Source of the DNA: Thermothielavioides terrestris NRRL 8126
Lineage: Eukaryota > Ascomycota > Sordariomycetes > Sordariales > Chaetomiaceae
Length of the DNA stretch: 64,000 nucleotides
Assembly (NCBI RefSeq): GCF_000226115.1
Contig: NC_016458.1
Location: 9,033,501-9,097,500, forward strand
Direction: 5' to 3'
Both the position numbers and the translations under genes were made by a program. Of the stretch, positions 52,900-53,730 are shown piece after piece. The stretch's first letter is position 1. Every line of letters begins with the position of its first letter. The notes below the pieces were generated by a model. The model saw only the letters and a program-made list of their open reading frames with translations, was not told the DNA's origin and ran no database searches.

Positions 52900-53730
52900 T
52901 ATAGATGGACAAGGGGGAGATAAACGTAATAATATACTCTACAAAGTACAAATTCATCTCTAGGACAGTTGCTTAAGACTATACTATAGTGTAGATAGCC
53001 TCTACGATATACCGATTCTCTCGCTAGGAAGAATTAAGATACTACGCTATATACTCGACAAAGCGACTATAGTACTATATAGCGAGATTGTCCTAAGGAG
53101 CCTAGTATAGAACTAGGGCTCCTTACTAGCTTAGAGTCGAAGGTGTAGGGAAGGTGACTAAGGGCATGTTAAAGGTAAAGGCGAAGTATACTAGAGATCG
53201 GTATATAAGGGCTACGTCAATCGTACTATAGAAGCTATATATAAAGGCAATAAATAGCACTTTTAAAATAGCGTAGTAGGCTAGCTCGGTTTTAGTTTTT
53301 TTATAAATAGGCTCTATAATAGCTTTATTGTTAATATAGAATTTAATTAGACGTTTTAAGCTAATATATAAGGAGGGGTTAGTCGCCTAGAGTGCTAAAT
53401 CCTAGCGACATTTAGTATATAACTTAGTATACTCTATATAGCTCTCTCTACGTCCTTGGACATATTTAACAAAGTTACTATATATAAGCCACTCAACGTA
53501 GTTTAAATAGATGTCCCTTTCCTCTTTAGGAAAGGTGTTATCCTTATTGTCTAAATCGCCTTTGACAATATAGCCGCCAATAGTATAGCGAAAGGAGTTG
53601 TTACAATTATTACAATTCTATCTAAGACATTGTTAACTTCTAACCTAGGGCTAAAATAGGCTTAACAAGGGATAACGTATATTATAGTCCTAGTTGTCGT
53701 CTCCTTTAGGATAACGTCTCTCCCTATTAT
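52900..53730 (-). pseudogene. Antisense accessory open frame in Gypsy-2 (RIP-damaged)
   Basis: A minus-strand frame antisense to gag-pol, downstream of the chromodomain. The core (53572-53252) is 107 codons, begins YIVKGDLDNKDN and contains SLKRLIKFY. It aligns without gaps to the core of Gypsy-3 with about 41 identical positions of 107 by hand count. Shared are the GD.DN motif, SY.EY.K.YT, and NP.L..SLK..K.Y. Only two TAG codons interrupt the core, both at positions that are also TAG in Gypsy-3. The frame continues past the core with QYYSRFVEYIA-like helical sequence. The start is probably near 53730. Gypsy-3 inserted about 170 bp upstream of that point. Confidence 0.65.

What the first reader, a model, noticed from the sequence alone, without database searches (positions are those of the whole stretch)
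52900..53730. An accessory antisense gene carried by two diverged chromovirus families
Seen: in Gypsy-2 (minus strand here) and in Gypsy-1 and Gypsy-3 (plus strand here) a long frame runs antisense to gag-pol between the chromodomain and the 3' LTR. The core is 107 codons in each copy. Gypsy-2 and Gypsy-3 align gaplessly with about 41/107 identical positions by hand count, although their LTRs belong to different subfamilies. Many codon differences are synonymous in this frame (GGA/GGC, GAC/GAT, AAC/AAT, CCC/CCT, TTA/CTA, AAA/AAG). Interruptions are TAG/TAA, as RIP makes from Gln/Trp codons. Known: antisense ORFs in this position are described for some plant Gypsy elements (for example Grande and Retand types). 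Inference: these fungal elements carry a protein-coding antisense gene that evolved under selection. I recognise no family, and it may be undescribed.
Basis: partly seen in the sequence, partly recalled or inferred. Interest (0 to 1): 0.88.

Follow-up and report, generated by a model that had tools for sequence, protein, structure and literature searches.

The report
Antisense Cys-rich gene in fungal retrotransposon
A fungal retrotransposon carries, backwards in its 3' part, a spliced protein gene with a six-cysteine motif that selection has preserved, and the same element backbone bears several long-diverged versions of it.

Summary
A protein-coding gene lies antisense to gag-pol, between the chromodomain and the 3' LTR, in all three window elements and beside 107 of 117 genomic matches to a pol-end piece. 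It has a 26-codon first exon, an intron with GT/AT...YAR borders (RIP turns GT into AT) and, in Gypsy-2, about 321 further codons. Six columns (C-x2-C-x11-C-x7-C-x2-C-x6-C) hold only Cys or Tyr codons in 49 of 49 and 26 of 26 copies examined. Transversions, which RIP cannot make, fall on third codon positions between the two versions (0.24/0.20/0.42, permutation p 5e-5) and against a GC-rich relative (4/2/18.5), so purifying selection on the protein is shown. 'Two diverged chromovirus families' is wrong: gag-pol differs by 0.42% transversions, the antisense module by 15-28% from a sharp border past the chromodomain. One backbone carries at least three versions, which points to cassette exchange. 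Antisense genes of this layout are known in plants and, as brtn, in Botrytis Boty elements; homology to brtn could not be tested. Function is inferred only: probably a nuclear, zinc-binding accessory factor of the element.

The parts
53681..53758 (-). Gypsy-2 antisense gene, exon 1 (26 codons; start codon reads ATA here)
   Evidence: start column ATG 19, ATA 28, other 2 of 49 copies; transversions 1.9/1.0/6.5 by codon position against the other version
53618..53680 (-). Gypsy-2 antisense gene, intron (63 bp)
   Evidence: donor GTAYRT or ATAYRT in 49 of 49, acceptor TAG/TAA/CAA/CAG in 48 of 49; CTAAC-like branch site seen by eye
52652..53617 (-). Gypsy-2 antisense gene, exon 2 (321 codons plus candidate stop at 52654-52652)
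   Evidence: 43 of 50 copies have no insertion within these codons relative to the window copy; column 322 is a stop in 48 of 50 with no RIP-precursor codon, but a lost Trp is not excluded; third-position bias
53408..53509 (-). Gypsy-2 six-Cys segment, columns 37 to 70 (C-x2-C-x11-C-x7-C-x2-C-x6-C)
   Evidence: TGY or TAY only in 49 of 49 and 26 of 26 copies; all six are Cys in GC-rich L031
54804..54881 (+). Gypsy-3 antisense gene, exon 1 (ATG)
54882..54961 (+). Gypsy-3 antisense gene, intron (80 bp)
   Evidence: donor GT or AT in 31 of 31 rows and acceptor YAR in 29 of 31; T. terrestris protein P0001 runs from the exon-1 reading straight into the exon-2 reading (its DNA was not seen)
54962..55933 (+). 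Gypsy-3 antisense gene, exon 2; the 3' end is uncertain (candidate stop 55931-55933)
34488..34565 (+). Gypsy-1 antisense gene, exon 1 (ATG)
34646..35617 (+). Gypsy-1 antisense gene, exon 2; the 3' end is uncertain
47275..61717 (+). Gypsy-2 element (ATAAT at 47270-47274 and 61718-61722), split by nested Gypsy-3
53905..60795 (-). Gypsy-3 element nested in Gypsy-2 (CTAAG at 53900-53904 and 60796-60800)
33589..41270 (-). Gypsy-1 element (CTTTA on both sides, 33584-33588 and 41271-41275, read from the printed flanks)
52490..52550 (.). border where Gypsy-2 and Gypsy-1/3 change from about 0.4% to 15-28% transversions, just past the chromodomain

Best explanation
Shown: the element carries a protein gene, tail to tail with gag-pol and opening toward the 3' LTR, under long purifying selection, with a conserved six-Cys motif; conserved intron borders indicate that it is spliced. 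Shown: one gag-pol backbone carries at least three long-diverged versions of this module. Inferred: it is transcribed antisense from its own promoter between exon 1 and the 3' LTR. The motif binds zinc, and the product is a small accessory protein, most likely nuclear, that helps the element in trans with its expression, its nuclear phase or evasion of silencing. Inferred: versions moved between elements by recombination, for instance template switching between co-packaged RNAs. My confidence is about 0.95 that this is a real protein gene, 0.8 for module exchange and 0.4 for a nuclear accessory role.
For: Transversion bias to third positions between versions, and between the GC-rich relatives L031 and L032 and the Gypsy-1/3 version, with a flat leader control 11/12/15 of 123/126/125 and a pol control 3/0/10 of 853/854/854. 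Intron borders and start codon vary almost only as RIP would change them. Strict Cys/Tyr columns. Gene on the opposite strand at a narrow range of distances from pol in 107 of 117 matches. Gag-pol 21 transversions of 4967 against 15-28% in the module. Pol ends of the three main versions 1.1-1.4% apart, within-version 0.5-0.9%.
Against: No RNA evidence. No domain match above cut-off and no confident fold (pLDDT 43.9). No copy examined is free of stops (minimum 2 over 163 columns in 49 Gypsy-2-like, 6 over 160 in 26 Gypsy-1/3-like copies), so the intact protein is inferred from many copies. In the Gypsy-1/3 version two other frames hold fewer stops (7.2 and 7.0 against 12.5 per copy). In one Gypsy-2-like group columns 56, 72, 77, 105 and 121 are stops in 16 of 16 copies, and in the Gypsy-1/3 version columns 72, 77 and 111 in 26 of 26, with no precursor codon left. 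Codons 73-163 show no third-position bias between the two Gypsy-2-like groups (5/4/5), and columns 1-20 give only p 0.07 between versions. Zinc binding and nuclear location are guesses from a motif.
Confidence: 0.8

Rival explanations
1. The product limits the element: a self-restriction or copy-number control factor acting against gag-pol, as the Ty1 p22/p18 protein does (recalled).
For: A separate protein gene kept beside 107 of 117 pol-end matches fits either sign of action.
Against: Nothing in the sequence favours restriction over help; similarity to Gag was not tested.
Confidence: 0.2
2. Counter-defence: the protein blunts host silencing, RIP or RNA interference, and its versions diverged in an arms race.
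For: Diverged versions on one backbone, in a genome with heavy RIP.
Against: Selection on the protein is purifying, not diversifying, at the scale measured; the copies examined of each multi-copy version were RIPed.
Confidence: 0.2
3. A captured host gene carried as a passenger; euchromatic L031 and L032 would be relatives of the donor.
For: L031 and L032 lie in GC-rich DNA, match this gene and showed no convincing match to other parts of the window's elements, and differ from it mostly at third positions.
Against: Both carry stops, L032 is frameshifted, and neither shows an intact gene; a passenger would not be expected to stay beside most pol copies under selection.
Confidence: 0.12
4. Only an antisense RNA matters; the frame is a by-product.
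For: Antisense transcripts of LTR elements without coding capacity exist (PMC7264820).
Against: Third-position bias, Cys columns, intron borders and start codon.
Confidence: 0.03
5. The high divergence of the 3' module is local fast evolution, not exchange.
For: The U3 part of Podospora crapaud LTRs is also diverged on a largely shared interior (PMC10787394).
Against: Third-position transversions are 42% in the gene against 1.2% in adjacent pol, with a sharp border.
Confidence: 0.1

Closest known systems
brtn of Boty-like retrotransposons (Botrytis cinerea; Zhao et al. 2011, seen only as cited in passages of PMC7264820, PMC8365987, PMC4227169, PMC5987419)
   Same: Fungal gag-pol element with CHROMO domain, additional antisense gene between pol and 3' LTR.
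   Different: Sequence not held, so homology, intron and Cys motif could not be compared.
Antisense aORFs of plant Gypsy elements: Grande gene23, RIRE2, Retand ORF4, PvRetro13 (PMC7264820, PMC11963269)
   Different: Retand genes carry TRP28 (PF04195), which is not matched here; Retand is a non-chromovirus lineage (PMC11963269).
crapaud of Podospora anserina (PMC10787394)
   Same: Chromodomain element of another filamentous ascomycete with a largely shared interior and several diverged modules; recombination and gene conversion proposed by its authors.
   Different: There the diverged part is the LTR U3, and the diagram legend names two ORFs, no antisense gene (0 hits for 'antisense').
HBZ of HTLV-1 (as described in a passage of PMC11963269)
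   Same: Antisense accessory gene of a retro-element encoding a nuclear regulator.
   Different: No sequence relation tested; a resemblance of layout only.

Membership tests
Antisense accessory gene between pol and 3' LTR (aORF-3R) | Antisense to gag-pol, between pol and 3' LTR | tested here: met
   opposite strand, downstream of the pol end in 107 of 117; 3' LTR position seen in the three window elements
Antisense accessory gene between pol and 3' LTR (aORF-3R) | Present in most copies and conserved as protein | tested here: met
Antisense accessory gene between pol and 3' LTR (aORF-3R) | Own antisense promoter and transcript | not testable with these tools
   no RNA data
Chromovirus (Ty3/Gypsy) | Chromodomain at the end of integrase | tested here: inconclusive
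   a 43-residue open piece of copy L034 matches PF00385 at E 9.4e-4, 19.5 bits, under the 25.1-bit cut-off; an integrase piece matches PF17921 at E 0.0015, also under its cut-off. I still take it as a chromodomain
Chromovirus (Ty3/Gypsy) | LTRs and 5-bp target-site duplications | tested here: met
BRTN protein family | Sequence homology to brtn | not testable with these tools
   paper and sequence not held
TRP28 (PF04195) | Profile match | tested here: not met
   not listed at E up to 10 (HMMER's filters drop most matches above about 0.1)
Known zinc-finger families in Pfam | Profile match above cut-off | tested here: not met
   best Zn_ribbon_PADR1 E 0.82; none for P0001, L031 and L032 pieces

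The most novel reading that the evidence does not exclude
The antisense gene is an exchangeable identity cassette: one chromovirus backbone keeps several ancient protein versions in circulation, swapped as modules between pol and LTR and kept because being different pays, for instance against silencing or against competition between co-resident elements.
Probability: 0.2. Interest if true: 0.85.

Novelty: new variant of a known kind. Interest (0 to 1): 0.6.

Why it matters
Two papers read here (PMC7264820, PMC11963269) call the function of antisense accessory genes unknown. This case gives a high-copy fungal family with measured selection, a defined intron that stranded RNA reads could confirm at once, a Cys motif to test, and natural version swaps on one backbone. 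It also shows that purine/pyrimidine comparison can recover selection from heavily RIPed repeats without repairing any sequence.

Tried and rejected
Tried without result: Pfam, no match above cut-off; PDB by sequence, 0 matches at E up to 10; protein search with the Gypsy-2 read-through, none of 14 candidates at E up to 10; viral contigs, 21 pattern matches and no relative; AlphaFold2 on the L031 piece with 10 other rows, mean pLDDT 43.9, so no fold search was made. The BRTN sequence could not be obtained. Considered and rejected: a sense-strand gene giving the same codon bias (the sense frame with the same third position has 16.0 stops per copy against 5.8 in the Gypsy-2 version, 13.3 against 12.5 in the Gypsy-1/3 version, and half the similarity score); a true stop at column 72 (the bias continues past it, and chromodomain Trp codons show nearly the same loss).

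Full report
What is there. The window holds three LTR elements: Gypsy-1 (33589-41270, minus), Gypsy-2 (47275-61717, plus) and Gypsy-3 (53905-60795, minus), the last nested in the 3' part of Gypsy-2. Gypsy-2 and Gypsy-3 have exact 5-bp target-site duplications, and CTTTA flanks Gypsy-1 on both sides. The genome has 36.9 Mb in 6 contigs. The only protein-search hits are two Thermothielavioides terrestris proteins, and two pieces of one of them read letter for letter from locus L032 of this genome, so I take the host to be that species or very near it (inference).

The gene. Antisense to gag-pol, a first exon of 26 codons opens with ATG (Gypsy-3, Gypsy-1) or ATA (Gypsy-2). Over aligned copies the start is ATG in 19 and ATA in 28 of 49 Gypsy-2-like copies, and ATG in 26 and ATA in 4 of 31 Gypsy-1/3-like rows; of these 31 rows one is L031 and one (L001) repeats the window's Gypsy-3. 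The donor is GT or AT in all 49 and all 31, and the acceptor is YAR in 48 of 49 and 29 of 31, which is what G-to-A RIP does to GT...AG. A T. terrestris protein in public records, P0001, runs from the exon-1 reading straight into the exon-2 reading (its DNA was not seen). In Gypsy-2 exon 2 runs from 53617 to a candidate stop at 52654, and 43 of 50 copies have no insertion within it relative to the window copy; whether that last codon is the stop or a lost Trp is open. The 3' end in Gypsy-1 and Gypsy-3 is not settled.

Chance and RIP. RIP makes only transitions, so I compared purine/pyrimidine states. Between 49 Gypsy-2-like copies (of 70 places in the genome) and 26 Gypsy-1/3-like copies (of 52 places, fragments included), transversion difference per codon position over 160 codons is 0.237, 0.196, 0.422 (permutation p 5e-5). 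For codons 73-160, beyond the column that is a stop in all 75 copies, it is 0.251, 0.196, 0.472 (p 1e-4); columns 1-20 alone give p 0.07. A non-coding control between the gene and the LTR is flat (11, 12, 15 of 123, 126, 125), and sense pol, the positive control, gives 3, 0, 10 of about 854 each. Two loci in GC-rich DNA, L031 and L032, match this gene and showed no convincing match to other parts of the window's elements; no RIP index was computed for them. Against the Gypsy-1/3 version they differ by 4.0/2.0/18.5 (99 codons) and 9.0/3.0/23.7 (74 codons), and from each other by 4/1/14 (41 codons). Against the reading: between the two large groups of Gypsy-2-like copies the bias is clear over codons 1-71 (3/0/10), absent in 73-163 (5/4/5), hardly testable in 164-240 (1/0/1), present in 241-330 (4/1/13) and hardly testable in 331-380 (1/1/2).

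Six cysteines. Columns 37, 40, 52, 60, 63 and 70 hold only TGY or TAY codons in 49 of 49 and 26 of 26 copies. In the Gypsy-1/3-like copies column 37 is TAY in all 26; L031 has Cys in all six. No Pfam family reaches its cut-off. Zinc binding is inferred from the spacing alone.

Stops. In the Gypsy-1/3 version 13 of 16 stop columns, with 248 of 326 stop codons, also hold CGG, CGA, CAA, CAG or TGG in some copy; in the Gypsy-2 version only 6 of 15, with 126 of 283. The rest are a few single stops and columns that are stops in whole groups: 72 and 77 in all 75 copies, 111 in 26 of 26 Gypsy-1/3-like copies, and 56, 105 and 121 in 16 of 16 copies of one Gypsy-2-like group. L031 has TGG at 77 and TAG at 72; L032 has TAG at both. 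Two chromodomain positions that are canonically Trp (recalled) are TAG or TAA in 52 of 57 and 56 of 57 readings. So saturated loss of Trp is the simplest account of such columns, not a proof.

One backbone, several versions. Gypsy-2 and Gypsy-1 differ in gag-pol by 21 transversions in 4967 aligned bases, and third positions of the last 2.56 kb by 10 in 854. From about 52,500 the rate jumps to 15-28%, with the border mapped to 52,490-52,550. Between the gene and the 3' LTR it falls from about 0.3 to 0.07-0.10; the LTR alignment shows 11 differences in its first 200 columns and none in its last 100. The Gypsy-2-like copies split into groups of 16, 32 and 1, with 6.7% transversions between the two large groups against 0.2% and 1.3% within. 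Their pol ends (window 51,900-52,480) are 1.4% apart, no nearer to each other than to the Gypsy-1/3-like copies (1.2% and 1.1%), with 0.5-0.9% within groups; the single copy L029 stands 1.2-2.0% off. Hence at least three diverged modules share one backbone. Exchange by recombination is the best account. The authors of the crapaud study discuss recombination and gene conversion for a comparable mosaic confined to the LTR U3 (PMC10787394; abstract, sections 8 and 12 and further passages read).

Copies. Of 117 matches to a pol-end piece, 107 have the gene on the other strand within 3 kb (median distance from pol piece 888 bp for Gypsy-2-like, with two same-strand neighbours in that sample, and 1242 bp for Gypsy-1/3-like), 2 have a same-strand neighbour and 8 have none. 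I did not check whether those 8 are truncated or split by other insertions. The genome tool calls its counts lower bounds.

How it works. Only layout and selection are shown. A separate gene opening near the 3' LTR suggests its own antisense promoter, as reported for Grande (PMC7264820, parts 1 and 2 of 3 read). In L031 an acidic stretch, the six-Cys module and a basic segment follow one another, which suggests a nucleic-acid or chromatin binding protein acting in trans (inference). I give about 0.4 to a nuclear accessory role that helps the element, 0.2 each to self-restriction and to counter-defence.

Prior art. [quoted passage not shown] PMC11963269, passages read). A fungal case, brtn, is cited in PMC8365987 and PMC4227169 (passages read), and a Monilinia transcript similar to BRTN is reported in PMC5987419 (passage read); the original paper is not held. 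No listing seen in nine paper searches names a gene of this description in this fungus (the listings of 68, 70 and 82 were cut at 15 of 30, 10 of 82 and 12 of 36). I therefore call it a new variant of a known kind: the kind is known, while the six-Cys spliced gene and the diverged versions on one backbone are what is new to me.

Noticed in passing
window 30000-30314 (-) and 43985-44956 (-): Two pieces with HAD-hydrolase profile matches (Hydrolase_6, E 5e-22; Hydrolase_like, E 0.007, under its cut-off) flank the Gypsy-1 island, as if the repeats had split one gene.
   Followed up: partly
L031 (C3:3957500-3965500) and L032 (C2:3105000-3112000): GC-rich loci with remnants of this gene and no convincing match to other parts of the element; L032 corresponds to the public T. 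terrestris protein P0002.
   Followed up: partly
window 31251-33536 and 61715-64000: An 87% identical repeat pair of another kind next to the Gypsy elements; both copies keep a 99-codon stretch without stops on the minus strand (32019-32315, 62483-62779) with no Pfam match above cut-off.
   Followed up: partly
window 39022-39812: About 790 bp present in Gypsy-1 and absent from Gypsy-3, at the 59337/59338 joint.
   Followed up: no
L029 (C5:322187-322624): A single Gypsy-2-like copy whose gene differs from the two large groups by 8-13% transversions, perhaps a further version.
   Followed up: no
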